Assembly (NCBI RefSeq): GCF_000424065.1
Contig: NZ_AUJE01000029.1
Location: 1 to 57,970, forward strand
Reading direction: 5' to 3'
DNA from: Selenomonas ruminantium subsp. ruminantium ATCC 12561
GTDB lineage: Bacteria > Bacillota > Negativicutes > Selenomonadales > Selenomonadaceae
Length of the DNA: 57,970 nucleotides
Position numbers and translations under genes: made by a program. Within the stretch, counting starts at the first letter, position 1. Every line of letters begins with the position of its first letter. Positions 22,141 to 48,848 of the stretch are shown here, one piece after another. The notes under the pieces are model-generated. The model was not told where the DNA came from, made no database searches, and was given only the letters and a program-made list of their open reading frames with translations.

Positions 22141-22197
22141 TGCCCTTTTGCCATTCGCTGCCGCTCATTGAACTGCCGTTGGCTGAAGGAGAAGACC

Positions 22198-25086
22198 ATG
22201 CCAAATTACTATTTTGACCTAAAGACGGATAAACGCCCCAATGGCAAACAGACAAGTGCGCATACGCACTGTGAGTACATCCAGCGCGAGGGGAGATTTG
22301 CCGACTTGGGGCAGGAAGAACTGGAAAGCCTGTCCTATAATAATTTGATTACCGGCAAGTACCCCATAGAGAATTTGCCGGAAAGCGAGTTGCTGCTATA
22401 TAGCAGCCCTTACGGGAAAATCCTTGTAGATAAAACTGGTGTTCGCTTTATGCGCCAATCTACCCTCAGCGAAGAAACCATAGCTATGGGCATAGAGATA
22501 GCCCGGAAAATCTACGGGGACGAACTGGAACTGAAAGGAAGAAGCCGCTTTGTAAGTAAAGCCATGGCCACGGCGGTCAAGCTGGAAGTGCCGGTGACTT
22601 GGAGCGATGAATATCAGAATAAGGTCATGGCCATCATGAAGGAGGATTACGAAAATGGAGAACGAGATTTTAGAGCAGCAGGGGGAAAATACATCCGGAG
22701 AAGAATTGCTGACCCCAGAAAACAGACAGGACGAGGCAGAGGTAAAAGGGATTTCCCAGAGCCTCACGCTAAACTCGATACCCTCGAAGCTTTGGCCCAA
22801 AGAGGATTCAGCTTGCCTAAATTGCCCCAATGCCATATGGTACGCCCAGAAGGAAGAAGCCAGCTGTTACTGTCTCGTGATGAGAATCATCACCTGCTCA
22901 ACAAATGCCGAGAATCCACTGCGCATCTGCGATGGTATAGCCTACGGGCAAGACGAAGAGCAATAGACAAAACCGTAAATGACATCATGGTGAACTTCCA
23001 GAAATGCAATGATGCCGTTTACGCATCCAGCCATGTGCAGTACATCACCCGTGAATCCATTTTCAAGAAAAGAGGCGGCTGCCTCTATACGGCAAATCAC
23101 TTGCCTCGCTGGGCAGAAGGAAACGCCAAGAAGTTCTTTCAGGCGGCAGACCGATATGAGCGAGGTAACGGAGAACGGTATAAGGAAATTGTCTTTTCCT
23201 TGCCCAATGAGTTGGGGCTGGAGGAAAACAAAAAGATTGTGGAGGCATTCGTGCAGAAGCATTTGCAGGATTTCTACTATGCCTACGCCATCCATGATAA
23301 GGTCGGAGCCATGAGCAACGGCGAACGGCAGCCTCATGTTCACATTATGTTTTCGACACGGGAAATAGATGAAGTGGAACGACACCATGAACGTCCACCG
23401 AAACTTTTCTTTAGTCGGGCAAATTCCAAGGCACCAGAAAAAGGCGGCTGCAGAAAATCGTGGAAGTGGATTTCTGCTGACCGCCAGAAGTATCTGTTGA
23501 AGCTTAGGAAGGACTGTGCTCTGATGCAGAATGAGGCATTAGAGCGAAACGGCGTAAATTTGAAGGTTGACCATAGGACACTAAAGGCGCAGCGCGAAGA
23601 GGCATTGGCGAATGGCAACTACTTTTTGGCAGACCTGCTTAATAAAATGCCGGAAAAGTATGTCGGCCCCGTGGAGTTGATGAAAGCCGATAGCCAAGTG
23701 GTGAAGAATCAAAAGTGCCTAAGAGCAGTCAATCACCAGCGGGAAAAAGACCTCATAGCCCGGCTGATGATTCAAGATGGCATTGATAAAGACACCATGG
23801 AGGAAAAATCCCAAGACCTGAAGCAGCGGCAGGATTCAATCTTTGCCTATGAACCAGACATTGAAGATGCGGATGAACGGGCATACTTCACGGAGGAAAA
23901 GCAGAAAATCCAAGAAATGGAGAAGGACATGGTGGCCGTTTACGGCATCACTCTCTGGGCACCTAAGGCGGTGGAAATGGCCTCACTTGATGCCATGACT
24001 ACCGAGGAAAAGGAACTATGGCAGGATTTGAAAAGCTACGGCAGAGAGAAAAAGGAATGGGAAATCCTCAAAAATCGCATGGGTGAGCCGCCGGGGGACG
24101 ATGTGGAAGCCTTGGAAGCATACCTTAAGATTTGCCCGGAAATCGACAAGGAGCTGGACAAGATTAACCTCAAAATCCATCAGGCAGCTGCCGAAATACG
24201 TCCGGTATTCGAGAGGTTGAATCTGCCCCACAACAAGGCCAGTATTTTGAAGCGAGCTGCCTTTTATGTGAATGACAACCGCTTGGCCAAGACTGAAATC
24301 AGGAAATTGCAGCGGAATATGGACAGTAAACTCAAGTCTTTGGACAAGCATATCAAGGACTATTTTGCCGTCCATCAAAAGAACCGGGAGTATTCAGCTG
24401 AGGAAGTGGCCAGCATCCTCAATGCGAATATTGCAAGGCAGGAAACAGCTGAAAAACGGCTGGCCAAAGAGCTTTACCACATGCGAAAACGGGTAATCAG
24501 CTATCCTAGAGCCATCGAAATGGCCAAAAATAACTATGTGAAGGGGGCGTTCAAACAGCTTCGCGCTGATAAACGTGAACTAAAAAAACGGGAAGATAAA
24601 CTCTCCCCGGAAGACCGAAATAGCGCATGGCAGGAAATTGACCGCCGTGAGCAGGAATTAGAAGCACGGTGCAGCACAGCGGTAGGCCGGTCAAAAATAG
24701 AAGCCATAGCAGCAGGCATACTTCGCAAAAATGCGCCAATAGCCAAAGAGTACAATATGTTAAGTGCCAAGCACAGAGCACTCAAAGATTCCATCGTACA
24801 GACAAAATACCAATCTCAGCGAGTTGAGGCAAGGGCACCACTAGAACAGGGCAATAAATTCCGTGTTGCGCCATCTGCCCAATCCTCTAGCAGCGGAGGA
24901 GGTGGTGGCAACTTACCTACGCCATCCCGTGATGCAGACCTCATCAGCAAAGCACTTTCCGGCGGAGCTAAAGAAGCCCAGCTTGTGGCAAGGTCAAAAC
25001 CAGACGAGCCAGACGATTGGATGTGGCTCAGTGAAGCTGAAAAAGATGATTTGCGTAATGATATGGCTACTATTGACAGGTATTAA
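22198..25086 (+). CDS. MobA/MobL-type relaxase
   Basis: I start this 962-residue protein at ATG 22198, preceded by AAGGAGAAG. Two related motifs occur: HTHCEYIQREGRF near residue 22, and SSHVQYITRES near 277 followed by PRWAEGNAKKFFQAADRYER, typical of MobA/MobL relaxases. The metal-binding histidines are in RQPHVHIMFS near 378. Residues 600-960 are long basic coiled coils and a Gly-Ser linker before the tail DLISKALSGGAKEAQ. Relaxases nick oriT, stay on the 5' end by a tyrosine and pilot the strand to the coupling protein. The segment 163-266 is Arg-rich and odd, because another gene overlaps it. A broken copy of the C-terminal third lies at 54839-55904. Confidence 0.82.
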   Translation: MPNYYFDLKTDKRPNGKQTSAHTHCEYIQREGRFADLGQEELESLSYNNLITGKYPIENLPESELLLYSSPYGKILVDKTGVRFMRQSTLSEETIAMGIEIARKIYGDELELKGRSRFVSKAMATAVKLEVPVTWSDEYQNKVMAIMKEDYENGERDFRAAGGKYIRRRIADPRKQTGRGRGKRDFPEPHAKLDTLEALAQRGFSLPKLPQCHMVRPEGRSQLLLSRDENHHLLNKCRESTAHLRWYSLRARRRAIDKTVNDIMVNFQKCNDAVYASSHVQYITRESIFKKRGGCLYTANHLPRWAEGNAKKFFQAADRYERGNGERYKEIVFSLPNELGLEENKKIVEAFVQKHLQDFYYAYAIHDKVGAMSNGERQPHVHIMFSTREIDEVERHHERPPKLFFSRANSKAPEKGGCRKSWKWISADRQKYLLKLRKDCALMQNEALERNGVNLKVDHRTLKAQREEALANGNYFLADLLNKMPEKYVGPVELMKADSQVVKNQKCLRAVNHQREKDLIARLMIQDGIDKDTMEEKSQDLKQRQDSIFAYEPDIEDADERAYFTEEKQKIQEMEKDMVAVYGITLWAPKAVEMASLDAMTTEEKELWQDLKSYGREKKEWEILKNRMGEPPGDDVEALEAYLKICPEIDKELDKINLKIHQAAAEIRPVFERLNLPHNKASILKRAAFYVNDNRLAKTEIRKLQRNMDSKLKSLDKHIKDYFAVHQKNREYSAEEVASILNANIARQETAEKRLAKELYHMRKRVISYPRAIEMAKNNYVKGAFKQLRADKRELKKREDKLSPEDRNSAWQEIDRREQELEARCSTAVGRSKIEAIAAGILRKNAPIAKEYNMLSAKHRALKDSIVQTKYQSQRVEARAPLEQGNKFRVAPSAQSSSSGGGGGNLPTPSRDADLISKALSGGAKEAQLVARSKPDEPDDWMWLSEAEKDDLRNDMATIDRY
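22655..22966 (+). CDS. cysteine-rich small protein nested out of frame in the relaxase gene
   Basis: This 103-residue frame lies wholly inside the relaxase gene. An AAGGAGG ribosome binding site stands 9 nt before its ATG, as good as any in the window. The product has an acidic first half and then ACLNCPNAIWYAQKEEASCY, CYCLVMRIITC and ICDG. This Cys-x2-Cys plus Cys-x-Cys set suggests a bound metal. I have the impression of similar CPNA-W and CYC patterns in small plasmid proteins, but cannot verify it. The relaxase frame over this stretch is Arg-rich and unstructured, which suggests that selection acts on the small protein. Confidence 0.55.
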   Translation: MENEILEQQGENTSGEELLTPENRQDEAEVKGISQSLTLNSIPSKLWPKEDSACLNCPNAIWYAQKEEASCYCLVMRIITCSTNAENPLRICDGIAYGQDEEQ

Positions 25087-32066: not shown

Positions 32067-33386
32067 ATGAGAAGAAAAATTATCGAGAAACAGGAGTATA
32101 GGGAAGCGTTTGACTGTTATCCCATGGGGATGGACAGCCGAACCTGGTATTCAACGGATTCCCGTGCAACGGGCTGCAACAACAGTTATCTGATTGTTGG
32201 CGGGTCAGGCAGCGGTAAGACTGAGAGCATAGCAAAGCCCATGATTCACGGCACAAATAATGGCAATCTGGTGGTTGTCTGCACCAAAAAGGAAATCATC
32301 CATTATGCCGTAAATGACCTGAAGGAAAAGGGCTACCGCACGATGCTGCTTAATTTCGTTGAGCCGGAAAAATCACCCTTTGGCTATGACCCGCTGTTCT
32401 ATTGTCAAAAATCTTCAGATGTCCATGACCTGGCACATACGCTTATGCAGGCGACCAATCACAAGGAGGAGGAGAAAGACCCGTTTTGGTCAAATTCAGC
32501 AGAGAATCTGCTGGCGGCAATTATGGATGTTGTACGTACGGGGAGCTATGAAAAAGGTAAGTCAATGGATAAGGCCCTGTACCTGCTGGATTACCTGTTC
32601 TATACCGGCAAGGGGGAATGGAACTTTATCGAAGGACTGGATACTGATGAGGAAATAGCAGAAAAAAAGAAACGTTATCCTTTGCATATATTGATGGAGA
32701 AGACCGTCCCAAAGAAGAGGCGATGGAATATTGTGTGGGAGACCTTTATCAATCTTCCGGAGCAAACCGGCACATGTGTGGCAGCTTCGACCCAGGAACC
32801 GCTGAACAAGGTATTTACGGAGGAAATACGCACCTTGCTCAAAAATGAAAACAGGTTTAACTTTTCAGAACTGCTTCAGCCTAAGACAGCGGTTATTGTA
32901 TATGTGTCGCCGGTCAACAGGGCCAATCATGCCTTTGTCAGCATATTTTATCAGCAGCTGTTCAAGAACCTCTTTGAGCTTGCAGAGAAGCGGGAGAGCG
33001 GGAAGCTTCCGTATCCTGTGCAGGTTATCTGTGATGACTTTGCCACGGGCTGCAAGGTGCCTGAGTTTCAGGAGCTTATATCCATCTTCCGTGAAAAACG
33101 TATCGGGGTGACGCTGCTGATTCAGTCGGAAAGCCAGCTGGCGGCCATGTATGGGGCGAAAAATGCAATAACCATTATCAATAACTGTGATACCTATGTT
33201 TATCTGGGTGGTATGGACCTAAAGACCAGTGAAAACATAAGCAAAAGACTGAATATCCCCCTCCATGAAGTATTGAATATGCCCATTGGGAAGGAATATG
33301 TTTTCCGCCGCGGGCAGGAGCCGATAAAAACGGAGCGGTACAGCCTGCAGGAAAGTCTGCAGAAGAAAAATATCAGCCGGATGTAA
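32067..33386 (+). CDS. TraG/VirD4-like type IV coupling ATPase
   Basis: The 439-residue protein has the coupling-protein core: Walker A in LIVGGSGSGKTESIAKPMI near residues 42-60, VVVCTKKEII, KDPFWSNSAENLLAA near 138, Walker B-like VQVICDDFATGCKVPEF near 318, and LLIQSESQLAAMYG near 345. Such ATPases deliver the relaxase-bound strand to the secretion channel. The N-terminal membrane helices of VirD4 are absent, so it would act as a soluble or recruited form (TraG-like short type). It is 9 nt behind clpP in one operon. Confidence 0.85.
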   Translation: MRRKIIEKQEYREAFDCYPMGMDSRTWYSTDSRATGCNNSYLIVGGSGSGKTESIAKPMIHGTNNGNLVVVCTKKEIIHYAVNDLKEKGYRTMLLNFVEPEKSPFGYDPLFYCQKSSDVHDLAHTLMQATNHKEEEKDPFWSNSAENLLAAIMDVVRTGSYEKGKSMDKALYLLDYLFYTGKGEWNFIEGLDTDEEIAEKKKRYPLHILMEKTVPKKRRWNIVWETFINLPEQTGTCVAASTQEPLNKVFTEEIRTLLKNENRFNFSELLQPKTAVIVYVSPVNRANHAFVSIFYQQLFKNLFELAEKRESGKLPYPVQVICDDFATGCKVPEFQELISIFREKRIGVTLLIQSESQLAAMYGAKNAITIINNCDTYVYLGGMDLKTSENISKRLNIPLHEVLNMPIGKEYVFRRGQEPIKTERYSLQESLQKKNISRM

Positions 33387-35665: not shown

Positions 35666-35686
35666 GGAGCATAGGAGAAACTACAG

Positions 35687-35974
35687 ATGATAAATCCTTT
35701 TTTGGAGTTTGGGGATGGAACAAAGGTTGTCTGTTCTGCCCCAATAGAAATTGATGGCAGAATGTGTGTGCGTGTCCTGTTTGAACGGTGGAGCGCCGAG
35801 CGCAACGATTATGACCGTATGGAGTGCCTGCTGCCGGACGGCGAGATGACGGGGGTTAAAGGTTTTACCCGGGAGGAAGTCCGCTATCATCATGGGAAGA
35901 TGATTCAGATGCAGGACAATATTCTGGAGTGGTCGAAGGAAGATGCAGAAGAGAGGCGTGATGAGGATGAGTGA
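35687..35974 (+). CDS. hypothetical protein upstream of kptA
   Basis: The 95-residue protein has a beta-rich first half (VVCSAPIEIDGRMCVRVLFE) and an acidic helical tail. It overlaps the kptA start (35961), so translation is coupled. No known motif is present. Confidence 0.6.
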   Translation: MINPFLEFGDGTKVVCSAPIEIDGRMCVRVLFERWSAERNDYDRMECLLPDGEMTGVKGFTREEVRYHHGKMIQMQDNILEWSKEDAEERRDEDE

Positions 35975-36533
35975 GAAAAAACTGTCAGCTGCAGAGGTAA
36001 AGATAAGCAGACGTATGGCCTATATTTTGCGCCACAGTCCGGAGTCGGCAGGCGTGGCTATGGATGAACATGGCTGGGTGGACACGGATGCACTGATGAA
36101 AACGCTGTGCAGTCAGGGTTATTCTGTGGATTCAGAATGCCTTGACCGCATGGTGTACTGTAATGGAAAAAAACGGTTTATTTATAATGACGATAAGACT
36201 AAAATCAGGGCCTGTCACGGGCATACGGTGAAGGTGGATGTGGAGCTGAAGGCTGCAAGACCGCCGAAGTTTTTGTACCATGGAACGGTGGGAGAGAATA
36301 CTGATGCTATTGCAGCGGAGGGGCTGCTGCCCATGAAAAGGTTATATGTCCATTTGTCTGCTGATGTGGAAACCGCACGGCAGGTTGCCGGGAGGAGGAA
36401 GTCATCCGTCGGATATGTCATATACCGTGTCAGGACGGAGGACATGATGAAGGATGGCCATACCTTCTGGCAGGTGGAAAACGGGATATGGCTTGCAAAG
36501 GCTGTACCGCCGGGCTATCTGGACATTTTGTAA
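35961..36533 (+). CDS. kptA: RNA 2'-phosphotransferase (KptA/Tpt1)
   Basis: The 190-residue protein has the KptA/Tpt1 signature in full: SRRMAYILRHSPESAG near residue 14, the winged-helix part HGWVDTDALM near 34, and RACHGHTVKVD near 82 (usually R-A-x-Q-G-H-S). YHGTVGENTDAIAAEGLLPM is near 106, and VHLSADVETARQVAGRRK near 128. The enzyme moves the 2'-phosphate of RNA to NAD, giving ADP-ribose 1'',2''-cyclic phosphate. Bacteria lack tRNA splicing that leaves such phosphates, so its real substrate is open. Gln in R-A-x-Q is replaced by Cys-His. Confidence 0.9.
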   Translation: MRMSEKKLSAAEVKISRRMAYILRHSPESAGVAMDEHGWVDTDALMKTLCSQGYSVDSECLDRMVYCNGKKRFIYNDDKTKIRACHGHTVKVDVELKAARPPKFLYHGTVGENTDAIAAEGLLPMKRLYVHLSADVETARQVAGRRKSSVGYVIYRVRTEDMMKDGHTFWQVENGIWLAKAVPPGYLDIL

Positions 36534-36912: not shown

Positions 36913-37229
36913 TGAGCGATGAGGAAATTTTGGCAAAAAACTATGGCCCCTGGGGGAATATGCGGAAAAAATTTTTGCATGAATACCGTCAAGCGGAATG
37001 GGGATTGCTGCAGGATGCGGGGAGACTGGATTCCTATCTTAAAAAAGTAAATGATGATTATACGGCAAAGACAGAAGACCTGATGGCAGCTGAGCTGGAA
37101 AGGCTTGGGGTAAATGAGGACCTGAAAAGCCGTGATGTTATGGCATGGGTTCAACGGTATGGGCAGGCAAGGGGAAACGTGCGGGAGACTTTGCAGAAGG
37201 AGCTGGAGAAAGAGAATGGTAACATTTAA
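36906..37229 (+). CDS. TnpV-like protein
   Basis: The 107-residue protein starts at ATG 36906 inside the end of the phosphatase remnant. It matches the TnpV pattern: NYGPWGNMRKKFLHEYRQAE, LLQDAGRLDSYLKKVNDDY, an acidic helix, and LKSRDVMAWVQRYGQARG. TnpV proteins are carried by Firmicutes transposons and ICEs without known activity. It aligns gap-free with the nested gene at 3035-3475. It overlaps the next gene by 14 nt. Confidence 0.7.
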   Translation: MVMSDEEILAKNYGPWGNMRKKFLHEYRQAEWGLLQDAGRLDSYLKKVNDDYTAKTEDLMAAELERLGVNEDLKSRDVMAWVQRYGQARGNVRETLQKELEKENGNI

Positions 37230-37413
37230 ACTGATGGAGGTAAATGGCAATATTGCGGTTTACCATTATTGGGTGGAGAATAATGAGAAGGAAAATCCGG
37301 ACGATTATGGGACGCTGGCATTTGACATGGAGACAAAGAACAGTGAAACGCCGGAAGTGGCACCTGGGGACTGCTGGAATACGTTGACGGTCGAAGACCT
37401 GATGAAGTTTTGA
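37216..37413 (+). CDS. small hypothetical protein
   Basis: The 65-residue protein (FKLMEVNGNIAVYHYWVENN) starts at ATG 37216 with GAGAAAGAGA upstream and overlaps the TnpV-like gene. It appears to be beta-rich in the first half and ends VEDLMKF. It is the last of the tightly packed small genes before the PIN-like gene. No family is known to me. Confidence 0.5.
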   Translation: MVTFKLMEVNGNIAVYHYWVENNEKENPDDYGTLAFDMETKNSETPEVAPGDCWNTLTVEDLMKF

Positions 37414-38103: not shown

Positions 38104-38165
38104 TGAAAAGGAAAGATATATATGAATACTTATCAGGCTATTGATTAGGTTTTGGAGGATTAATT

Positions 38166-41100
38166 ATGAGTTTAAAGCAGTGTCCAGATATAGCATTACT
38201 GTACAGAGAGTTTTATGAACAGTATCAAATGGATTACCGTAACAATATGATGCTAGTAGATGCAGCTACTGGTCAAGGGAAAACATATGCGTTTCTTTGG
38301 TTTTCAGAAGCATTATTAGAAGGAAAAATTAAACCAAAGATAAAACATAGAAGACGTGGTGATATTATAAAAGATTTTAAAATATTTTATATTTACCCGA
38401 AGAAATTGGATGCTCCTATTCAAGATATAAATAATGGTAATTTTCCAAAGTTGAAAGATAATTATGTTATTTTACATTCTCGATTAGACGCTTTGAAAGC
38501 ATGCTGGGGGGAGGATTTTTCAGAATCAAACCAAGAGGTAATGATTCAAAGAGTAGAACAAATGATTACACCATTCAAAAAATATTGTGAAAGATGTAGC
38601 AGCAAACTCACCCCTTATTTAAAAAAATTTTTAGGTAGTTATCGAGATTGTGCAAAAATGTATTATCACTATATATTAAGAAACAGGAATAATGATAATA
38701 CAAATGTCGAATGCTACGCATATAATAATCAAATGTTTTCAATGAAAAAAGATGAAGATTTTGAAATTAATAATTACGGCATAATGGTTAAATCATTAAA
38801 AAAATTATTGAAGAAAATAGCTGAAATCAATGAGTGGCAAGATTATGAAGGTATTTATAAAGATGAAGAAACATTCGGAGTATTTCGAAGGATGTTTCCT
38901 GCAATGGAATTATTTAATCCTAAACGGAAGGTATTCTTCATGACGGCGGCAAAAGCACTTCGGATTATCGATCCAATAATTGCGCCATCCTTTTATTTTA
39001 AATCGATTAGAAAGCAATTTTCATCTAAGCCAGTTATCCATTTGTTCATTGATGAGTTTGATGAATTTATAATTGAATATAATAAAATACGATATGATGA
39101 AGCAAGGAAAAATCCGTATGGAATTATCGGATTAGCACAACAACTTTTGGGAATTCGCTATAAGAGGTTATCGAAATTAGGTAAAGGTATTCATGGTGAT
39201 TTAGAAGGTGAAAATAAGATACTTCAAAACAAAGTAACAGAATATTGCGAACAAATGGATAATAAAATTGATGCTATTCTAGAAAAATATCCTTTTTTGC
39301 CTGATGATTTTAAATTTGAAAGTGATGAACCAGAGTTTATCTATTTAGCCATATTTGGGTATCCATTATTGAGATGCTCATTATCAAATCGTGAAAGCTT
39401 AAAAGGTAAATTTGAGTACATTATACCACATACAGATGGATATTTTAATGAATGGTCTCCTCATAATCAAATATGTTCTATCACTGTAAAAGAGGGAAAG
39501 GAAACTGATAATAATTATATAAAATTACGCGATTTTATACACGATGTTACCGTGTTTAATCGCAGTATGATTGCAAAAATATCTTTTATTGTACGTATTT
39601 ATCATGAATTGATAAATAAAAGGATAATAAGGAGTAAGTCTAATCTAATAAACAGTTATAATGAAGATTTAAGCGTCTTTCGTGAAATTAGTTTGGATGA
39701 ATGCGTAACGACGGTATTGGATGAGTTTGGATTATACGATTCCAATATGAGTAGGTATGCAAATCCATATGTAAATTTAGTGCTGCAAGAATTGAGTCGA
39801 GATACTTTTGGTTATCGTAGGAATAGTAGATATCTGTTTATTCCAGCCATTTATTCTTTTTTTAATCGCGGTTATCATATAGTGTGGCCGAAACAAGATT
39901 ATAGTCATTATCAAAAAGATGATATATCATCTTGTGATTGTGTATCATCTTGTGAGAATTTTTTTCTAAATTTGACATCATCGACTAAGAAAAATCTTTA
40001 TGATAATAATAAGTTGATTAACGATAATGACAGTCACGTACTGATTTATGGTCTTTCTGCTACGTCACATTATGATTCGATTCTTACAAATCTTAACTAT
40101 AATTACCTTTTAGATATCGGAGATAAAATACTATATTATCCTTCAGATAAACTTTGCCAAATGATAAGGAAAAACTTCGAATTAAAAAACCGTTTTAATA
40201 CTAAAGGGCAGGAAGTTAATGTATCTTGTGTTATTCCTGATGAGAAAATAATAAAAATAGCTACTAAAAATATAAAGGAAGAAATATATATACAATTACA
40301 TCGTAATCATGTAAAAGACCTTTGTGACGCCTTGGATGGCATAGGTATTGATGACCCTGTAGGTTATGCACAAGATTTTTATGATGAATTAGATATTTTA
40401 ATACAAAAAATGACAGCTGATGGAAAAATGGAGTATAGACTGCGATATATTTGTATTTTTTTTGAGTGTTTCCGTAGCTTCTTGGATAATAATATTCGTT
40501 CGTTTCTATTTTTTAATACAGCTTCATTATATGAGTATGAAAACTTTTTGAAAAATGCTGCTTTAGTTATTGCAATTTTAAATAATCATATTCATACAAG
40601 ACAAGAGCTTAATGAATGCAAGAAATGGTTATGTTTCTTTAAGGCAACACATTTTCGTGATGAAAAAATAGAATATGATGTTAATGAAAAAAATTTGCGT
40701 CCCGTTTTATTGCGATTGGCAAAAGGAGGTCGTGCATTCATTATTACCGCATACGCATCAGCTGGCCGTTCTTTTAATCCAATTTATCCAGCTCCATTTC
40801 AAGATTTGTATGATGAAAAGATTCATTGCATAGGCGGCGATGATGATATTACTGAATTTGAAAGCAGACGTTCCAAAATAATAAAAGCGGGAAGACAGTA
40901 TTACGAAGAACAAGTTGATCTTTGGTTTAATCATAAAATTTTATCAGATGAGTTTATTATGGTTGATTTTCAGGGTTGTTATACCGGTATGCCAACATAT
41001 ATTTTCCCGTTTATAAAATCACAAAATGGTACGAGTCTTATTTCAAATCTTCCTGAAGCATTTATACAGGGGTTGGATTATCTTTGCAGACTTAGAGATT

Positions 41101-42419
41101 ATAATGAAATATCAATTGACGAATTTAAGAAGGGGTTGAATAATTTTGCACTAAAAATCACTCAAGATGAAAATACTAAATCATTTAATGACTTTAGTCC
41201 TAAAAATTTGATTAGTACACAAATATCATCATTGCAAACCGTTGTACAAGCGATAGGACGTATAACGCGTGGGAAAAATAGATATAGCAAAATAATACTT
41301 TATGTGCAAAATGAATTACTAAAGTATCCATGGCAGCTTATTTATGGTGCATCAAAGCTTAATCATAATCATTATATTAAGATTATTCTGGAAGAAGCAA
41401 AAAAACGTGGAATCAGTACAGACTATACATATAAGAAACATATCGAACAACTAAATAAACAGTATCTTATAACTGCATCTAATAATTTTGGAAAATTGTT
41501 ATCGGAAATCGCCCAACACTTTGGGGAGGAGGGACCAAGTAAAGCAGATGAACTTTCTAAGTTAAAATTTGACGATTTGCATACTTATTGTTTACAAAAT
41601 CAAGTTAAGTGCAGGGATTCAGCTGATTTTCTATATCCTAGCATCGAGGGAGTAAAAGAGAGGAATGTTTTTATACGTTCCCTGACAGGAAAGCCGATTT
41701 GTAAAAGATATTATAAATTTGAGGAAAATAGACAAGATGGTCGATATGTACGCATTTCTGAAGTTAGTGATACGCCTCCAGGGGATGGATGGAATGAGAT
41801 GTCTGCAGATGCATTACAATTGCCACTATATAATCGATGCATAGAATTTCATGAAGCTTTTAAAAAATTACATATACCTGTAGAATGGGAGCCGCAAATG
41901 TATCTTCCTGTACCATCTTTTTTTGAACAAGTTTGTAAGGGACGTATTGGTGAGATTATACAGGATGTTTTTTTGTCAAAATATTTGGGGTACACTGCAG
42001 AATCTTTATCAGGAAATATTTATGAACTTTTTGATAGAGCAGTTAAAGAAGTTCCAGGTATATACTTTGATGCTAAATTCATGACAGAAAACAGCTTTCA
42101 TAATTATGTTGAATCTTATTACAGTTTAAGTCATTTATCTAGGAAAATAAAAACTGTTATCGATAAGGGGAGGGACATACAGGGCGTTGTTATTATAAAT
42201 ACACGAATTTTGACAGAACGAGTAAATAGCCCAATACTTAAACCTAAGAAATACTTTGTTGAATTAGAAGATAGGAAAATACATATTCTTCAGATTCCAC
42301 AACTGCTTAAGCCGATTGTAGGGAAATATTTGGTTAATAATATTTGTGATGAGGTCAAAGATGCTATAAAAGAATTTACTGCAAGTATGATAGGAGAGAA
42401 AAATAATGGAAAAAATTAA
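38166..42419 (+). CDS. SF2 (DinG-like) helicase with C-terminal PD-(D/E)xK-like nuclease
   Basis: The 1417-residue protein has Walker A MLVDAATGQGKTYAFLWF at 29-46, a Walker B variant LFIDEFDEF near 295 (DE-F-D instead of DEAH), and motif VI VVQAIGRITRGKN near 1025, like the DinG/Cas3 kind. The last 250 residues carry a restriction-endonuclease-like pattern: CKGRIGEIIQDVF near 1258, YELFDRAV near 1287 and IYFDAKFM near 1299 (E, D, D-x-K). The gene is strongly AT-rich against its surroundings. It overlaps the next gene by 14 nt. GGAGG lies 8 nt before the ATG. A defence helicase-nuclease is the likely role. Confidence 0.7.
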   Translation: MSLKQCPDIALLYREFYEQYQMDYRNNMMLVDAATGQGKTYAFLWFSEALLEGKIKPKIKHRRRGDIIKDFKIFYIYPKKLDAPIQDINNGNFPKLKDNYVILHSRLDALKACWGEDFSESNQEVMIQRVEQMITPFKKYCERCSSKLTPYLKKFLGSYRDCAKMYYHYILRNRNNDNTNVECYAYNNQMFSMKKDEDFEINNYGIMVKSLKKLLKKIAEINEWQDYEGIYKDEETFGVFRRMFPAMELFNPKRKVFFMTAAKALRIIDPIIAPSFYFKSIRKQFSSKPVIHLFIDEFDEFIIEYNKIRYDEARKNPYGIIGLAQQLLGIRYKRLSKLGKGIHGDLEGENKILQNKVTEYCEQMDNKIDAILEKYPFLPDDFKFESDEPEFIYLAIFGYPLLRCSLSNRESLKGKFEYIIPHTDGYFNEWSPHNQICSITVKEGKETDNNYIKLRDFIHDVTVFNRSMIAKISFIVRIYHELINKRIIRSKSNLINSYNEDLSVFREISLDECVTTVLDEFGLYDSNMSRYANPYVNLVLQELSRDTFGYRRNSRYLFIPAIYSFFNRGYHIVWPKQDYSHYQKDDISSCDCVSSCENFFLNLTSSTKKNLYDNNKLINDNDSHVLIYGLSATSHYDSILTNLNYNYLLDIGDKILYYPSDKLCQMIRKNFELKNRFNTKGQEVNVSCVIPDEKIIKIATKNIKEEIYIQLHRNHVKDLCDALDGIGIDDPVGYAQDFYDELDILIQKMTADGKMEYRLRYICIFFECFRSFLDNNIRSFLFFNTASLYEYENFLKNAALVIAILNNHIHTRQELNECKKWLCFFKATHFRDEKIEYDVNEKNLRPVLLRLAKGGRAFIITAYASAGRSFNPIYPAPFQDLYDEKIHCIGGDDDITEFESRRSKIIKAGRQYYEEQVDLWFNHKILSDEFIMVDFQGCYTGMPTYIFPFIKSQNGTSLISNLPEAFIQGLDYLCRLRDYNEISIDEFKKGLNNFALKITQDENTKSFNDFSPKNLISTQISSLQTVVQAIGRITRGKNRYSKIILYVQNELLKYPWQLIYGASKLNHNHYIKIILEEAKKRGISTDYTYKKHIEQLNKQYLITASNNFGKLLSEIAQHFGEEGPSKADELSKLKFDDLHTYCLQNQVKCRDSADFLYPSIEGVKERNVFIRSLTGKPICKRYYKFEENRQDGRYVRISEVSDTPPGDGWNEMSADALQLPLYNRCIEFHEAFKKLHIPVEWEPQMYLPVPSFFEQVCKGRIGEIIQDVFLSKYLGYTAESLSGNIYELFDRAVKEVPGIYFDAKFMTENSFHNYVESYYSLSHLSRKIKTVIDKGRDIQGVVIINTRILTERVNSPILKPKKYFVELEDRKIHILQIPQLLKPIVGKYLVNNICDEVKDAIKEFTASMIGEKNNGKN

Positions 42420-44724
42420 AATAAATCAATTTATTAATGATGTAGTAAATTGGGAAGCCCTGAATAAACGTTATTATCTATTTCGTTTGTCATCTAATAG
42501 GGATAAAGACTTAAAATTCCAGTATGATGTTTTCTTTGAATATATAAAAAATTCGAATCTTTCTTCTGTAGTGTCATGTCTATATACTGGTTTCGCAGAA
42601 AGGGCTGTGTATATTCTTTTCAAGAAGGATAATGACTATAAGGAGCAAGATTATCATATAGCTTTATACAATTATACTAAAGAAAAATGTGGTGATGTAG
42701 GTTTTTATATTCATGCAATAAAAAATGAAACGGATTTTATCTTTTCCAGAAAGTATTTGGATAGTACACCTATTATTAGGCAATTGTTTCTTAATGCTGT
42801 GACATGGCAGGACCCATTTAATAATTCGACTGGAAGATGTCTGGTAGTACAGAAAACGATGAAAGCTGGTAAGGGGACAGTGGCGCCTGCTTTAGAACTT
42901 CGAGTTGATGAACACAATGTTTTGTCGTTTAAGGTAGTCACATTTGCGTCAATTCAAGGGGATAATTGGTATTACTGGGGAAAAATGGGGAAAAGAAGGC
43001 GAGAACAATTCTTAATTGGTGATAATTACATGAGACGATGCAAGTATCGAGATATACCAAGTGATGAAATCCTTAAGGGTGTTTTTGTGCAAAAAAAACC
43101 TTGGTTTTTAAAAAATAAGAAAGAAGATATACCATTTCTGTTAAAGGGAAAGGATGAAAAATATGCAAAATTGTATCAAATGCATAATGTTCTGGAATCT
43201 GCGTCAAAAATTGCAGGTGATATTATATCTTTTGAATTTAAGGAAATAGAGGAAACTGAAATTCATCCATATAAGAGAAATAAAAAACAAAAATTAGATG
43301 AAAATATAGAGATTATTAGTCTGGAGTCGCAGAATAAACTATGGGAAGATATGTTATGCAAGTGGGGGGCAAATATCCATTTGGATATTTGCTTTGCTAG
43401 AGATTGTGATTCGGTATGTATCCCACAGCCACGTTTTTTTAAAGCATTACAGGAAGCTTTTGCTCCATACTTTAAATCCGTAGAATGCTGTGATATGAGT
43501 GATAAGCCTTACGAGAAATGGGATGGTTTTAATCGCGTGGGTATGATTATCCTGGGAAAAGATCGTAACGACTATCAAGGGAAACGTGAAAATGATCCAT
43601 ATTACGACAAAGAAAATGTACTAGGGGTTTCTGTTCGTTTGACTAGTAAAACTGTCCAACAAGTTATAGTTGATAAAAGTGATGGATATACAGGCCTGAT
43701 AAGAACAGAACTTTTGGAACTTCGTGAGATAGCCGATATTCGCCAGCAGAATAGCTCGTTTTATTTGACCGCCGGCAAGAATCTTTTGGAGTCAGATTTA
43801 CTACTCTGCACCAAAAATCCCAATTCCAAAAGTTATTTGCATAAAGATGAAGCGCTTTATTTTAGTATTCTCTCCCCAAATGGTAAGATGAAATTTATGA
43901 AGGAAGGAGTTGATACCCTGGGATATATTTCAAATGAACAGCTTGAGTGTATGTACCGCAGTATGGAAAGAAAGGATAAGCCTATTACTTTAGCGGGTAT
44001 GACCAAGTGGAAAGGTCAAATAGTGAGCTTTGGTATTTCATTGGGAAAAATCTATCCTTTGCCTAATTATAGAGAATTTTACGACTTTGTGAAATTGGGG
44101 AAAGATGTGGAAGCTAAAGGGCTACCTTTAAAAACATGGTATGATGCCGTAATTATGGGAGGGGATAAAACCTATCCATTGATAGATTGCTTAAAAAGTA
44201 TGAATACTAACGGTGAATGTGAATATATCACCTTCGCTGGCCTAAAAAAAGCATTTAAAGAATTTGATCGCAGAGAAAAAACTTTTCCTGAATCTGTGTG
44301 GAAGAAAGCACTTATTGATACAACAGATAGAGCAATGTTTCTAGCGTTGCAAAAAATTATAAAAAAAATGCTTAATATTGATATAAAACTAAACTATAGA
44401 AGTAGTGAAGTTATAAATAAGTATTATCGGATGATGTTAGGATTACATGCGGCATATATGGAAGAAGGTAAACATGTCTATTATTGGCGCGGACAGAATG
44501 GCGGAATTAGAACAAGTGTATTAGAGCGTGGCACCCCAGCACGTGAGATTTACCTAGAAGGTTTTGATAATTTAGATGATCGTAAGGACTTCCTTCATCG
44601 TTGTTTGTTGCCGTTTTTAACATTTGAACATATAAAATGGGGAGAAGATACAGCATGGCCTATGCCATATAAGTATTTACGGGAGTATATTAATTTACAT
44701 TTACGTGAAACAGATGTAAATTAA
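42406..44724 (+). CDS. PIWI-like (pPIWI_RE-type) protein, tentative
   Basis: The 772-residue protein is coupled to the helicase-nuclease by a 14-nt overlap. I read it as a distant pPIWI_RE-type protein for three reasons. Its partner is a DinG-like helicase plus nuclease, the known company of that family. A MID-like helix occurs (DPYYDKENVLG with TVQQVI, 397-420). The C-terminus WPMPYKYLREYINLHL resembles the closing helix of PIWI domains. The segment CLVVQKTMKAGKG with LELRVDEHNVLSFKVVTF is near 145-185. Members are thought to use nucleic acid guides against invading DNA or RNA. The catalytic RNase H-like acids are not obvious, so it may be inactive or not PIWI at all. Confidence 0.42.
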   Translation: MEKIKINQFINDVVNWEALNKRYYLFRLSSNRDKDLKFQYDVFFEYIKNSNLSSVVSCLYTGFAERAVYILFKKDNDYKEQDYHIALYNYTKEKCGDVGFYIHAIKNETDFIFSRKYLDSTPIIRQLFLNAVTWQDPFNNSTGRCLVVQKTMKAGKGTVAPALELRVDEHNVLSFKVVTFASIQGDNWYYWGKMGKRRREQFLIGDNYMRRCKYRDIPSDEILKGVFVQKKPWFLKNKKEDIPFLLKGKDEKYAKLYQMHNVLESASKIAGDIISFEFKEIEETEIHPYKRNKKQKLDENIEIISLESQNKLWEDMLCKWGANIHLDICFARDCDSVCIPQPRFFKALQEAFAPYFKSVECCDMSDKPYEKWDGFNRVGMIILGKDRNDYQGKRENDPYYDKENVLGVSVRLTSKTVQQVIVDKSDGYTGLIRTELLELREIADIRQQNSSFYLTAGKNLLESDLLLCTKNPNSKSYLHKDEALYFSILSPNGKMKFMKEGVDTLGYISNEQLECMYRSMERKDKPITLAGMTKWKGQIVSFGISLGKIYPLPNYREFYDFVKLGKDVEAKGLPLKTWYDAVIMGGDKTYPLIDCLKSMNTNGECEYITFAGLKKAFKEFDRREKTFPESVWKKALIDTTDRAMFLALQKIIKKMLNIDIKLNYRSSEVINKYYRMMLGLHAAYMEEGKHVYYWRGQNGGIRTSVLERGTPAREIYLEGFDNLDDRKDFLHRCLLPFLTFEHIKWGEDTAWPMPYKYLREYINLHLRETDVN

Positions 44725-45126: not shown

Positions 45127-45465
45127 ATGTCAACTGGAAAAAAATACGACAACGATTACAAAGTACAAGCCGTTAAACTTGCTATGGAAATTGGGCAGAC
45201 TAAAGCAGCAAAAGAGCTTGGACTCTCCAAAAGCGCGATAGGCACTTGGGTTAGGAACGCACGAACGGGCAAGTTGGATATGGGCGATGATGCCATAACC
45301 TTTACCAAGCCACTGTCTGCCAGCGAGAAGCTGGCTATCCTAGAACGGGAAATGAAGGCTCTTAAGAAAGAAAATAGAGAATTACGGGAAATGAACGAGT
45401 TCCTTGAAGAGGCCTCCGCTTTTTTCGCCGCCAGCCGTCAGAAGTACGCAAAAAGGAAAGAATGA
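45127..45465 (+). CDS. IS3-family transposase OrfA
   Basis: The 112-residue protein has the OrfA helix-turn-helix (YDNDYKVQAVKLAMEIGQTK, then LGLSKSAIGTWVRNARTGK) and a leucine-zipper tail LKKENRELREMNEFLEEA. OrfA directs the transposase to the element ends and is fused to OrfB by -1 frameshifting. The end AAAAAGGAAAGAATG overlaps the OrfB frame by 4 nt, a typical slippage and coupling zone. The OrfB behind it is truncated. Confidence 0.88.
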   Translation: MSTGKKYDNDYKVQAVKLAMEIGQTKAAKELGLSKSAIGTWVRNARTGKLDMGDDAITFTKPLSASEKLAILEREMKALKKENRELREMNEFLEEASAFFAASRQKYAKRKE

Positions 45466-45833
45466 AATTCTTGGCTCAAAAGGTTTCTGATGGCAATGGA
45501 AAGCAACATGTAACCCGTTATTGCCGGTGGCTTGGCATTAGCAGGCAGGGCTTCTACAAATTTATGAAGGCATCTAACAAGCCGTGGAAGCATGCTGCGA
45601 TAGCTCAGGAAATACGGGATATTATCGCCGAAGATGACTGGAACGATAATTACGGGAAGAAACGTATATGGGAAGCACTTCTTCTGAAGCATCCAGATGG
45701 CGATATTCCCAGTATAACCACGATATATCGAATATTGACAAAGATGGGGATTATCCGAAAGGCAAAGAAAAAGCCTAATGGGATAACTAAGGCTGACAAG
45801 AATTCCAGGAAATCAGATACTCATTCTGCTTAA
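45462..45833 (+). pseudogene. truncated IS3-family OrfB
   Basis: The 123-codon frame has the helical start of OrfB with RYCRWLGISRQGFYKFMKAS and the HTH_21-like segment DWNDNYGKKRIWEALLLKH. It ends at KKKPNGITKADKNS before the DDE integrase (rve) domain. The catalytic core is lost and the next gene on the minus strand begins its 3' end only 3 nt later. The copy cannot move by itself. Confidence 0.85.
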
Positions 45834-45836
45834 CGG

Positions 45837-46841
45837 CTATTCATGCGGAACGAGCTTAGATGTATGCCTTTTATCCAGTCGGTCAGCTACATGGGCATAA
45901 CGAGCCGTAACCTTTGGGTCGCGATGTCGGAGCGTATCCTGCACCAATCGTAAATCCTTGGTTTCTTTATACAAATTCGTGCCACAACTGTGCCGGAAGA
46001 CATGGCATGAGTAGCCGGGATGCTTCAAATCGCAGGCAGTTAGTGCCTTATTCATAATGGAGCGGATGCCATTCCGGGAAATACGGCCCATAAAGTTCCT
46101 ATTAGATGAAGAAAGTATCAACGGCGTGAGAACGCCGTCTTTTTTTACTGCATGGTCGGTGGGGATGGCCTTCAGGTATTCCTCGATAAGCTCAAAGGTT
46201 TCTTCACAGGGATAGATGGGCTCCATCCTGCCTTTTGTGCCTTTTCCCCGAATCATAATAGCATTTGCTTCCCAGTTGATGTCTTCTACGCAGGCGCGGT
46301 GAACCTCAATATTTCGCAGACCTTCAACGCCCATCAGATAAAGGATAAGCCTATTCCTGGTTCTGGTAAAGGTATCCTTATCTTTATCGAAAACATGGAC
46401 GATTTCGTTCATTTGCTGCGGTGTGTAAAAATGCAGAAGAGCATCAACATTGTGGCCGATAGATGGAGCCTCCACATCAGCAGCGGGATTGACCTGTATG
46501 AGTTCAATTTTCTTGGCTGCAGCATAAAATGCACGGACAGCTGCCAGCATAACTTGAATGCTGTCGGGCTTATACTGCCGGTTCAGTAAAAATTCCCGAT
46601 ACATCAGAATCTGGTATTCATTTAAGGCCAAAGGATGTCTTTCGTGAGTAATGCACCAGCGGACGAAGAAGTCAATCTGGTTGCAATAGTGCCGCATGGT
46701 ATCTGAGGATGGATTTCCCTTGGCAATGACCCGGGGAATGAATTCAGAATAATGGGTTAAAAAGTAGTCTGGAGTAATCTGCTGGACATCCAGAGTCGAG
46801 GACAGCTGATTAGTTGTTGTTATCAAGTTGTTAACAGGCAT
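45837..46841 (-). CDS. tyrosine recombinase / integrase
   Basis: The 334-residue protein has the SAM-like N-terminal core-binding domain (about 20-120) and the catalytic domain with all expected residues. These are Arg in GVEGLRNIEVHRA (near 175), Lys in IRGKGTKGRMEPI, H-x-x-R in CHVFRHSCGTNLY (near 282), His in LRHRDPKVTARYAHV and Tyr 7 residues on. It cuts and rejoins DNA at att, res or dif-like sites and may integrate the element or resolve its dimers. It reads from an independent promoter region at 46842-47150. The short size is XerC/D-like. Confidence 0.9.
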   Translation of the reverse strand: MPVNNLITTTNQLSSTLDVQQITPDYFLTHYSEFIPRVIAKGNPSSDTMRHYCNQIDFFVRWCITHERHPLALNEYQILMYREFLLNRQYKPDSIQVMLAAVRAFYAAAKKIELIQVNPAADVEAPSIGHNVDALLHFYTPQQMNEIVHVFDKDKDTFTRTRNRLILYLMGVEGLRNIEVHRACVEDINWEANAIMIRGKGTKGRMEPIYPCEETFELIEEYLKAIPTDHAVKKDGVLTPLILSSSNRNFMGRISRNGIRSIMNKALTACDLKHPGYSCHVFRHSCGTNLYKETKDLRLVQDTLRHRDPKVTARYAHVADRLDKRHTSKLVPHE

Positions 46842-47150: not shown

Positions 47151-48848
47151 TTAGGATAATCTCCGTGATAGCGTCAGCCTCAGCATAAACATTCCAATCT
47201 CCTCTAAATATTTCACAGGAAATTCCGCTACTAAACTGTCTTCTGATTCGGACACTGGCAAATAATCCATCAATGGACCATGAGCAATAACCACCATTGA
47301 TGCATGGGTAGATGTATGCCGTGGTAAACCTTCAATCTCATGAGCAAGGTCAACCCATCTCTTGATTACTTCCGATGATTCATAATGCTGACGAAATTCC
47401 GCAGACGTATTCAATGCTTCATCCAAAGTCATACGTAATTCATTTGGTATAGTTCCGGCTATAGCATCTACCTGCTCATAATCCATTCCCAAAACTCTGC
47501 CCACATCTCTTAATGCAGCTTTAGCCAGCAGTGTACCAAAAGTGACAATCTGTGCTACGCTGTTATAACCATAGCGTTCCTTAAGATAAGCGATTACAAA
47601 ATCTTGATTATCTCGCTGTGGGTTATAGCCTAACTTAAATTCAGGTAAGGATATATGCTCCAGATTCAAAACAGCGTCAGCTTCTAAATTACACTTCGAA
47701 GGTTCTACTTTACTAAGTCCAAGAACATAAGCTATAACACTACCTTCCAAATAACTACATCGTGACCTTACACTAATTTCATGTTCTCGGCAAAATTCAA
47801 TAATATCCTGTGCAATCAGGATATATCTTGCAAGGTCGCTCCTTTTAATCATGTCTAGTTCATAACATAATTGTTTCTGTATTTCTTCTGTAATTACCGA
47901 ATAATATTCAGGGAGAGCTTTTTCACATAGCGCACACAAGTATTCATCATCTGTTTTATAATCTTTTGGTAATGAAAATGCAGGCATTTGCATTTGACCA
48001 AAGGTAAAGTCAACCTGACAGCGTTCAGCGATTTTTACGGTATTGGCAACAGCCTCTGGATATTCCGAAAACAATATTGCTATTTCCTGTGGAGATTTAA
48101 GGTAATACTCTCCATTATCATATCGGCCATTCTTATATTCGTCCAAGTCCATGCCATGTTCTATACAATGCAGAACAGCATATAACTCACTATCTTCCTG
48201 ACGTAAATATCGACAATCGTTGGCTGCCACCAAACCTAAGCCAAAATTCTCAGCTAATTCAACCAAGCCCTTATTGACATTTCTCTCTTGGCCTAAACCG
48301 TGATTCTGAACCTCAATGAAAAAATTTTCTTTACCGAAAATATCGATATATTCTTGAGCTACTTTTTTCGCTCTTAGCTTATTATTGCGGCTAATTGCAC
48401 GATAGACTTCGCCATCAGCACCAGATGACAAGCAGATAAGCCCCTCATGATACTTTTGTAGAAGTTCTTTATCCACTCGTGGCTTGTAGTACATCCCCTC
48501 TATATTGGCCAATGACACAAGTTTCACTAGATTTTTATAGCCCGTCTGATTTTCTGCCAACAGAATCAAATTGTAGTACGTTTCACCATCAACAGCACAG
48601 CGGTCATATCGTGAAGCAGGGGCCACATACACCTCACAGCCGATAATTGGCTTGATTCCCTGCTTTTTACATTCCTTGTAGAAAGGTATAACTCCGTACA
48701 GCGCTCCATAATCGGTAATCGCTAAATGTTTCATACCCAGTTCTTTAGCTCTTGCCACCAGTTCTTTGATGCAAGCTACACCGCTATAAATACTGAATTC
48801 TGTATGGACATGAAGGTGCACAAAATGTCCCTCATCAACTGTTATCAT
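47151..48848 (-). CDS. truncated, probably inactive DnaE-like protein (PHP + start of palm)
   Basis: The 565-residue protein matches the first half of DNA polymerase III alpha (DnaE): PHP domain (FVHLHVHTEFSIYSG, then GIKPIIGCEVYVAPASRYDR), linker and palm start. Key residues are changed throughout. TDH is TDYG, HLILLA is NLILLA, ND-V-HYL is ANDCRYL, the RGSAAGS loop is RSRCSYLEGS, and the catalytic P-D-x-D-x-D is LPEFKLGY. It ends just after PVKYLEEIGMF, before the third catalytic Asp. The frame has stayed open over 565 codons, so a non-catalytic role is possible. It could instead be a recent truncation. Confidence 0.8.
   Translation of the reverse strand: MITVDEGHFVHLHVHTEFSIYSGVACIKELVARAKELGMKHLAITDYGALYGVIPFYKECKKQGIKPIIGCEVYVAPASRYDRCAVDGETYYNLILLAENQTGYKNLVKLVSLANIEGMYYKPRVDKELLQKYHEGLICLSSGADGEVYRAISRNNKLRAKKVAQEYIDIFGKENFFIEVQNHGLGQERNVNKGLVELAENFGLGLVAANDCRYLRQEDSELYAVLHCIEHGMDLDEYKNGRYDNGEYYLKSPQEIAILFSEYPEAVANTVKIAERCQVDFTFGQMQMPAFSLPKDYKTDDEYLCALCEKALPEYYSVITEEIQKQLCYELDMIKRSDLARYILIAQDIIEFCREHEISVRSRCSYLEGSVIAYVLGLSKVEPSKCNLEADAVLNLEHISLPEFKLGYNPQRDNQDFVIAYLKERYGYNSVAQIVTFGTLLAKAALRDVGRVLGMDYEQVDAIAGTIPNELRMTLDEALNTSAEFRQHYESSEVIKRWVDLAHEIEGLPRHTSTHASMVVIAHGPLMDYLPVSESEDSLVAEFPVKYLEEIGMFMLRLTLSRRLS

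What the first reader, a model, noticed from the sequence alone, without database searches (positions are those of the whole stretch)
38166..44724. AT-rich helicase-nuclease plus PIWI-like protein: candidate defence system
A DinG-like helicase fused to a PD-(D/E)xK-like nuclease (1417 residues) overlaps by 14 nt a 772-residue protein with a MID-like helix and a PIWI-type C-terminus. The known pPIWI_RE systems place helicase, nuclease and PIWI in separate genes; here helicase and nuclease would be one chain. The island differs sharply in base composition from both sides, so it was acquired as cargo.
Basis: partly seen in the sequence, partly recalled or inferred. Interest (0 to 1): 0.88.

Follow-up and report, generated by a model that had tools for sequence, protein, structure and literature searches.

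The report
Divergent DdmDE anti-plasmid gene pair
The two genes look like a far-diverged member of DdmDE, a known bacterial system in which a guide-binding Argonaute-like protein directs a helicase-nuclease against plasmids, and here the pair sits as a two-gene cargo on a mobile element of a Selenomonas bacterium.

Summary
Two overlapping genes (38166-42419, 1417 aa; 42406-44724, 772 aa) encode a helicase-nuclease and a partner, at 0.30-0.36 GC. The comparison with pPIWI_RE is wrong: no pPIWI_RE model matches. The pair is a divergent DdmDE. Profiles built from six other DdmD and six other DdmE proteins, ours left out, score 111.6 bits (E 1.6e-33) and 34.6 bits (E 4.9e-10); the best of 1000 shuffles scored 6.2 and 8.0. 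Helicase motifs and the nuclease site (E1263, D1290, D1302-A-K1304) align with those of other DdmDs. Selenomonas sp. AE3005 has the same two-gene block at 84% DNA identity on mostly different flanks, with dN/dS about 0.165 for both genes. PADLOC, Pfam and NCBIfam scans do not name it. The contig carries a relaxase and a coupling protein, so a presumed anti-plasmid system rides on a mobile element. Both AlphaFold models failed (pLDDT 29), so the Argonaute fold is inferred from sequence only. Plasmid elimination is inferred from characterised relatives; it was not tested here. New member of a known kind.

The parts
38150..44713 (+). two-gene cassette shared with Selenomonas sp. AE3005 (L016 9985-16551) at 84.3% DNA identity; the other matches nearby are shorter and lie at other distances
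   Evidence: blastn; AE3005 locus
38154..38158 (+). GGAGG, likely ribosome-binding site of the first gene, 7 nt before its ATG
   Evidence: sequence 38104-38165 printed; reading by eye
38166..42419 (+). DdmD-like SF2 helicase with C-terminal PD-(D/E)xK nuclease, 1417 aa
   Evidence: ORF; phmmer to PDB DdmD 9ix4_A E 0.0049, three collinear pieces of 3.8, -0.1 and 11.2 bits; leave-ours-out DdmD profile 111.6 bits; A8 profile in own genome 1.1e-9 and 5.8e-7
38271..38285 (+). Walker A GQGKT, residues 36-40
   Evidence: alignment
39051..39062 (+). helicase motif II DEFD, residues 296-299
   Evidence: alignment
40056..40064 (+). helicase motif III SAT, residues 631-633
   Evidence: alignment
41247..41270 (+). 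helicase motif VI QAIGRITR, residues 1028-1035
   Evidence: alignment
41937..42077 (+). nuclease site: K1258-G-x-x-G-E1263, D1290, D1302-A-K1304
   Evidence: alignment (E1263, D1290, D1302 and K1304 columns hold the same residue in 10 of 10 rows); strongest profile match covers window 41889-42308
42406..42419 (+). 14-nt overlap of the two genes
42406..44724 (+). DdmE-like (Argonaute-family by homology) protein, 772 aa
   Evidence: ORF; leave-ours-out DdmE profile 34.6 bits, two collinear pieces 3-303 and 656-762
43594..43662 (+). D397-x-Y399 ... Q418-Q419 signature shared with other DdmE proteins
   Evidence: alignments (D and Y in 10 of 10 rows, the Q in 9 of 10)
44659..44685 (+). C-terminal P752-x-P-x-K756-x-x-x-E760 shared with other DdmE proteins
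   Evidence: alignments (P752 in 10 of 10 rows, K756 and E760 in 8 of 10)
22168..25086 (+). context: MobA/MobL (MOBQ-type) relaxase, 82% identical over 71% of its length to that of plasmid pSRC6
   Evidence: NCBIfam MobQ match is below its cut-off
32067..33386 (+). context: VirD4-like coupling protein (Pfam T4SS-DNA_transf; NCBIfam CD1115 family below its cut-off)
45127..45833 (+). context: transposase pieces after the cassette
   Evidence: Pfam HTH_Tnp_1, and HTH_21 below its cut-off; the label IS3-type is my reading
45837..46841 (-). context: tyrosine recombinase (XerC/XerD-like)

Best explanation
The pair is a deeply diverged DdmDE system carried as a two-gene cassette on a mobile element, most likely a plasmid, of a Selenomonas. 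By analogy with the characterised systems, the 772-aa Argonaute-type protein binds a short DNA guide and pairs with plasmid DNA. It then recruits the 1417-aa helicase-nuclease, which loads on the displaced strand, runs along it using ATP and cuts it through its C-terminal PD-(D/E)xK domain, so that the invading plasmid is lost. On a mobile element this would remove competing plasmids rather than simply defend the cell. Shown here: operon, homology to both DdmD and DdmE, conserved ATPase and nuclease residues, purifying selection, transfer genes on the contig. Inferred: guide use, recruitment, plasmid loss, benefit to the element.
For: Leave-ours-out profiles: DdmD 111.6 bits, DdmE 34.6 bits; best of 1000 shuffles 6.2 and 8.0. 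In the jackknife, left-out known DdmEs scored 177, 107, 104, 85, 13 and -3 bits, so ours (34.6) lies inside the family's spread; left-out DdmDs scored 144-535 (G311 and Nostoc, near relatives, were left out together). phmmer match to solved DdmD, E 0.0049. PADLOC's DdmD model finds only this ORF in the host genome at E<=1 (20.7 bits, E 8.3e-5; it also rang in 1 of 14 control genomes, E. coli). The references are real: G311's proteins match PDB DdmD at 4.5e-55 and PDB DdmE at 3.7e-14. E1263, D1290, D1302 and K1304 are shared by 10 of 10 aligned proteins and parallel the residues listed for ApsA (D1420, D1433-V-K1435). All six reference pairs have the order D then E with overlapping ends, as here. 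dN/dS 0.165 and 0.164. Transfer genes on the contig. Published mechanism: PMC12409362 passages.
Against: No fold evidence: both AlphaFold models have mean pLDDT about 29. The phmmer match to solved DdmD is weak piece by piece (3.8, -0.1 and 11.2 bits). The two-row profile of our 772-aa protein and its sister finds nothing in the PDB, and hmmscan against Pfam, PADLOC and NCBIfam names neither protein DdmD or DdmE. Reverse profiles (built from our two sequences) score the references weakly: DdmD G311 18.5 bits, the others -49 to 10.9, with a decoy ORF at 18.9; DdmE at most 13.2, top decoy 3.8. Our DdmE scores 8.3 to 49.2 bits over the jackknife training sets; without G311 and Nostoc it is 8.3, barely above the best decoy at 7.0. 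Identity to five other members is only 16-21% (D) and 15-19% (E). No experiment touches this lineage.
Confidence: 0.82

Rival explanations
1. The pair belongs to the ApsAB class or to the published 'intermediate' group of the same superfamily, with the same anti-plasmid outcome but guide handling through an ApsB-type MID motif.
For: [quoted passage not shown] Our helicase-nuclease (1417 aa) is longer than the six reference DdmDs of 1137-1366 aa.
Against: The ApsB motif Y-x3-K..QG..K, searched as a spaced pattern, is absent from our protein and from the six DdmE references. Our 772-aa protein matches DdmE profiles, whereas the paper reports no similarity between ApsB and DdmE. A profile from two enterobacterial pairs, of class unknown, does not find our 772-aa protein (-2.6 bits) and scores our helicase at 3.8 bits, best of 300 shuffles 2.8.
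Confidence: 0.12
2. One reading: a pPIWI_RE system in which helicase and nuclease have fused.
For: A weak PADLOC typeIV_DinG match (E 0.011) in the helicase; helicase, nuclease and PIWI-like activities in one operon.
Against: No pPIWI_RE model in Pfam at E<=1; PF13032 and PF13111 silent in the whole genome; two genes instead of the REase, DinG, pPIWI-RE triad described in PMC3702460 (passages); positive match to DdmD and DdmE.
Confidence: 0.02
3. It is a DdmDE relative whose main target is phage or any replicating foreign DNA, or that acts by killing the cell, rather than a plasmid-clearing system.
For: Nothing in the sequence tells plasmid from phage targets.
Against: The characterised relatives act on plasmids (PMC12409362 and PMC11096173 passages).
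Confidence: 0.1
4. A decaying island with no present function.
For: It sits beside transposase pieces.
Against: Both reading frames are intact, the catalytic residues are kept and dN/dS is about 0.165 against the sister locus.
Confidence: 0.04

Closest known systems
DdmDE of Vibrio cholerae and Lactobacillus casei (PDB entries such as 8u0u, 9ezy, 9ix4, 9iw3; that 9ix4 and 9iw3 are the L. casei proteins is recalled)
   Same: SF2 helicase plus C-terminal PD-(D/E)xK nuclease; Argonaute-family partner by profile; matching active-site residues through the bridging references.
   Different: Identity to the V. cholerae and L. casei proteins themselves was not measured; it is 16-21% (D) and 15-19% (E) to five bridging members in seven-row alignments (25% to G311 DdmD in a three-row one). 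D is 1417 aa against PDB chains of 1190-1220, E 772 aa against 677-715. Not named by the PADLOC, Pfam or NCBIfam scans. On a mobile-element backbone with transfer genes rather than the V. cholerae island VPI-2.
ApsAB of Escherichia coli ST38 (PMC11096173)
   Same: Helicase-nuclease plus Argonaute-like partner, anti-plasmid, same helicase and nuclease motifs (section 11).
   Different: The ApsB MID motif is not found in our protein, and our partner resembles DdmE, to which ApsB shows no reported similarity.
Unnamed pairs on a Citrobacter freundii plasmid (L033) and in a Proteus mirabilis record (L034)
   Same: Helicase-nuclease plus a partner of about 810 aa; the partners match the DdmE profile at 17.7 and 27.5 bits, best of 300 shuffles 4.9 and 4.6, and share the D-x-Y...Q signature.
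   Different: Their two-row profiles do not clearly find ours.
pPIWI_RE triad (PMC3702460)
   Same: A helicase, a nuclease and a PIWI-type protein encoded together.
   Different: Three separate genes (passages), and its sequence models do not match.

Membership tests
DdmDE | two adjacent genes, helicase-nuclease first, Argonaute-like second | tested here: met
   ORFs overlap by 14 nt; the same order with overlapping ends in 6 of 6 reference pairs: G311, Nostoc, Persicobacter, L. intestinalis, Cetobacterium, G069
DdmDE | DdmD with SF2 helicase motifs and a C-terminal PD-(D/E)xK nuclease | tested here: met
   leave-ours-out profile 111.6 bits; motif columns
DdmDE | partner homologous to DdmE | tested here: met
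   34.6 bits, E 4.9e-10, best of 1000 shuffles 8.0; with G311 and Nostoc left out of training only 8.3 bits, top decoy 7.0
DdmDE | match to the PADLOC DdmD model PDLC04130 | tested here: inconclusive
   not listed by hmmscan at E<=1; the only match in the host genome at 20.7 bits, E 8.3e-5 for one genome, with 1 of 14 control genomes also ringing. The model names 3 of 4 other DdmDs tried
DdmDE | Argonaute fold (MID and PIWI) of DdmE | tested here: inconclusive
   AlphaFold model pLDDT 28.8, not usable
DdmDE | catalytically inactive PIWI, DNA guides, recruitment of DdmD, plasmid elimination | not testable with these tools
   needs structure and biochemistry; known from PMC12409362 passages
ApsAB | ApsB MID motif Y-x3-K..QG..K | tested here: not met
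   spaced pattern absent; the spacing window was my choice around the published positions 409, 413, 431 and 489
ApsAB | sequence similarity of the partner to ApsB | not tested
   no ApsB sequence was at hand
pPIWI_RE | RNaseH_pPIWI_RE and pPIWI_RE_X domains | tested here: not met
   (0 of 14 control genomes over the cut-off, so no positive control)
pPIWI_RE | three-gene operon REase, DinG helicase, pPIWI-RE | tested here: not met
   two genes, nuclease fused to the helicase; triad described

The most novel reading that the evidence does not exclude
A third, separately evolved branch of the helicase-nuclease/Argonaute anti-plasmid superfamily, beside DdmDE and ApsAB, used by mobile elements of Selenomonas as a weapon against competing plasmids, with its own way of sparing the element that carries it.
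Probability: 0.22. Interest if true: 0.62.

Novelty: new member of a known kind. Interest (0 to 1): 0.42.

Why it matters
The scans of Pfam, PADLOC and NCBIfam give this pair no DdmDE name, and PADLOC named 3 of 4 other DdmDs and 0 of 2 other DdmEs tried, so plasmid-clearing Argonaute systems may be under-counted. A presumed plasmid-clearing system on an element with its own relaxase and coupling protein raises a testable question: how does such an element act on other plasmids and spare itself? Four plasmid records with complete D-E pairs turned up in passing, and a Citrobacter plasmid with a more distant pair, so a plasmid carrying such a pair is not a single case. The divergence also gives a well-separated sequence for finding which residues are essential in both proteins.

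Tried and rejected
pPIWI_RE: rejected. Structure prediction: both jobs used (772-aa protein; residues 218-1417 of the helicase; two-row alignments only); mean pLDDT 28.8 and 29.0, so no fold search was run. Relatives in viral contigs: three related-loci scans that ran confirmed none; one DNA-pattern scan gave two loci, one (L028) a partial DdmD (259 bits with the DdmD profile), the other (L029) not, by eye. The genome-contig scan used only two short N-terminal patterns and found just the sister locus, so it says little about absence. Single-sequence hhalign was uninformative. Plasmid tblastn with our own two proteins found nothing; in phages our 772-aa protein had two chance-level matches (E 0.7) and G311 DdmD none. 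One review (PMC12904381, passages) was not used because its text swaps the names DdmD and DdmE.

Rows dropped: (5 of 398 genomes), G157 and G341 were not counted as relatives. G157's contig shows, by eye, no helicase among its ORFs of 150 aa or more; G341's locus was not examined beyond the match. In one search (7 of 398), G230, G129 and G347 were not counted: their matches are short N-terminal stretches, in loci that I read by eye as type I restriction and CRISPR Cas3-type genes (no family search). In one search (3 of 189), G568 was not counted: a 77-residue match at 6.1e-4 with seven stops. In one search (222 decoy ORFs) the top 'decoy' of the DdmD tests, L028, is a true DdmD, so it is not a decoy score; the decoys at 18.9 and 13.0 bits in the reverse DdmD test come from L008 and L009, loci that had been fetched by a match to that same profile.

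The distinctness of the Selenomonas branch is not settled: in the trees (9 DdmD rows, 8 DdmE rows) our pair is a long branch, other long branches meet it, and several forks are weak. Plasmid or integrated element: not settled. The contig has no terminal overlap, no replication gene was recognised among the 36 ORFs scanned with Pfam of 101 listed at 90 aa or more, and a tyrosine recombinase is present.


Full report
What is there. The window holds two overlapping genes on the + strand, 38166-42419 (1417 aa) and 42406-44724 (772 aa), sharing 14 nt. They lie in a stretch of 0.30-0.36 GC beside 0.43-0.51 on the left; GC3 is 0.221 and 0.286. To the right the contrast is weaker, since 47-55 kb is also 0.33-0.42 GC. 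The host lies in the same genus as genome G248, which matches the record of Selenomonas sp. AE3005 in contig length and place of the locus.

First tests. Scans of both proteins against Pfam, PADLOC and NCBIfam at E<=1 gave no pPIWI_RE, DdmD or DdmE name. The first signal was a phmmer match of the large protein to the solved structure of DdmD (9ix4_A, E 0.0049). It has three collinear pieces around helicase motif III, motif VI and the nuclease, but only the last carries weight (3.8, -0.1 and 11.2 bits). The 772-aa protein alone matched nothing sensible.

Bridging relatives. A profile search of 398 genomes of the phylum with our helicase and its sister found G311, whose pair is a true DdmDE: 4.5e-55 to PDB DdmD and 3.7e-14 to PDB DdmE. 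tblastn with G311 DdmD found 5 plasmid records of 72,556. Four of these five were read and each has a complete D-E pair: Nostoc, Persicobacter, Lactobacillus intestinalis and Cetobacterium. A profile of these five DdmDs, without ours, was run over the same phylum draw of 398. It gave 7 genomes, of which I count four as holding such a pair: ours, the sister, G311 and G069. Within our own genome the profile matches only this ORF at E<=0.1 (1.1e-9 and 5.8e-7).

Leave-ours-out test. Profiles of six DdmD and six DdmE references score our proteins at 111.6 bits (E 1.6e-33) and 34.6 bits (E 4.9e-10). The best of 1000 shuffles of our proteins scored 6.2 and 8.0. The DdmE match has two collinear pieces, residues 3-303 and 656-762. 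In a jackknife known members were left out (G311 and Nostoc together). Left-out DdmEs scored 177, 107, 104, 85, 13 and -3 bits, so our DdmE lies within the spread; left-out DdmDs scored 144-535, so our DdmD is more distant than any of the six. Against this: over the jackknife training sets our DdmE scores 8.3, 16.6, 20.5, 21.0 and 49.2 bits, and the lowest, without G311 and Nostoc, is barely above the top decoy at 7.0. Profiles built from our two sequences reach the references only weakly. A seven-row DdmE profile that includes ours finds the solved DdmE at 2.8e-27, which the reference rows alone could explain; the two-row profile of ours finds none.

Active sites. A joint alignment of ten DdmD-type proteins puts our GQGKT (36-40), DEFD (296-299), SAT (631-633) and QAIGRITR (1028-1035) on the helicase motifs. 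E1263, D1290, D1302 and K1304 hold the same residue in 10 of 10 rows. In that alignment the Walker A columns are empty for L. intestinalis and Citrobacter. The layout parallels the residues listed for ApsA in section 11 of PMC11096173. In the second protein the columns D397, Y399, E438 and P752 are shared by 10 of 10 rows, Q418 and R713 by 9, K756 and E760 by 8.

Selection and transfer. Selenomonas sp. AE3005 (L016) carries the same block, from 38150 to 44713 in window terms, at 84.3% DNA identity; the other shared pieces nearby are short and lie at other distances. dN/dS between the two loci is 0.165 (D) and 0.164 (E), so both proteins are kept under selection. The pair is rare here: counting our own genome, our D protein finds 2 of 189 genomes of the order and our E protein 2 of 398 genomes of the phylum draw.

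The carrier. The contig also encodes a MOBQ-type relaxase, 82% identical over 71% of its length to that of the S. ruminantium plasmid pSRC6. It has a VirD4-like coupling protein, an ArdC-like protein and a topoisomerase. Three pieces, 7% of the 24.9 kb searched, are about 97% identical to the 285-kb plasmid pSRC1. It is therefore a mobile element, most likely a plasmid. But a tyrosine recombinase is present, no replication gene was recognised among the 36 of 101 listed ORFs that were scanned, and the ends do not overlap, so an integrated element is possible.

How it would work. In the reviewed model, DdmE binds DNA guides, finds plasmid DNA and recruits DdmD; DdmD loads on the non-target strand, moves 5' to 3' and cuts through its nuclease domain. 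The system acts primarily on small plasmids (PMC12409362, passages). Our pair keeps the parts that this needs as far as sequence can show. Guide binding, recruitment and plasmid loss are inferred. A preference for small multicopy plasmids would also explain how a larger element can carry the system safely; that is inference.

What it is not. pPIWI_RE: no model matches and the gene layout differs from the triad in PMC3702460 (passages). ApsAB: the ApsB MID motif pattern is absent from ours and from the six DdmE references, and the paper reports no similarity between ApsB and DdmE; no ApsB sequence was available for a direct test. Two further pairs from Citrobacter and Proteus records also match the DdmE profile (17.7 and 27.5 bits), though their own profiles do not clearly find ours, so the superfamily is wider than the models.

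Limits. No usable structure. Three papers on DdmDE mechanism were not held, so the mechanism rests on a review's passages. The tree is small, with long branches. Literature searches (all papers found were listed, 9, 5, 9 and 1; 10 listed of 924 and of 48) showed no title or abstract start that describes this Selenomonas pair; one paper found that way (PMC12406693, passages) mentions DdmDE only as a V. cholerae system. This is an open-access library only.

Verdict. A real, selected, divergent DdmDE pair on a mobile element: a new member of a known kind, with a good testable question about an element that carries a presumed anti-plasmid weapon.

Noticed in passing
L013 1893-11909 and L014 1019-10999: On plasmids of Persicobacter and Lactobacillus intestinalis the DdmDE pair lies close to replication and partition-type genes (directly after ParB in Persicobacter), as if built into the plasmid core.
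   Followed up: partly
L015 4027-9947: The Cetobacterium plasmid p6 also carries a DdmDE pair, and its record holds a MobA/MobL relaxase match at 22510-23352, about 4 kb before the pair, although PLSDB calls it non-mobilizable.
   Followed up: no
L033 4595-10949 and L034 5393-11697: Enterobacterial helicase-nuclease plus ~810-aa partner pairs, annotated only as hypothetical or not at all, match DdmD and DdmE profiles. In L033 the Walker A motif lies between an IS1 and the annotated start.
   Followed up: partly
window 2380-9717: A 2445-aa protein with weak methyltransferase and clear SNF2/ResIII helicase matches.
   Followed up: no
window 47151-48848: Only the N-terminal half (565 aa) of a DNA polymerase III alpha subunit, in a second low-GC stretch that also holds a PHP protein (53111-54364) and a WYL regulator (51996-52967).
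   Followed up: no
window 27609-28112 and 35943-36533: Two RNA-end enzymes on the element: a LigT/ThpR-type 2'-5' phosphodiesterase and a KptA/Tpt1-type RNA 2'-phosphotransferase.
   Followed up: no
window 35685-35953 and 37216-37382: Short stretches left of the cassette also occur left of it in Selenomonas sp. AE3005 (90% and 78% DNA identity) but side by side in one ORF and at other distances, as in a shuffled accessory region.
   Followed up: partly
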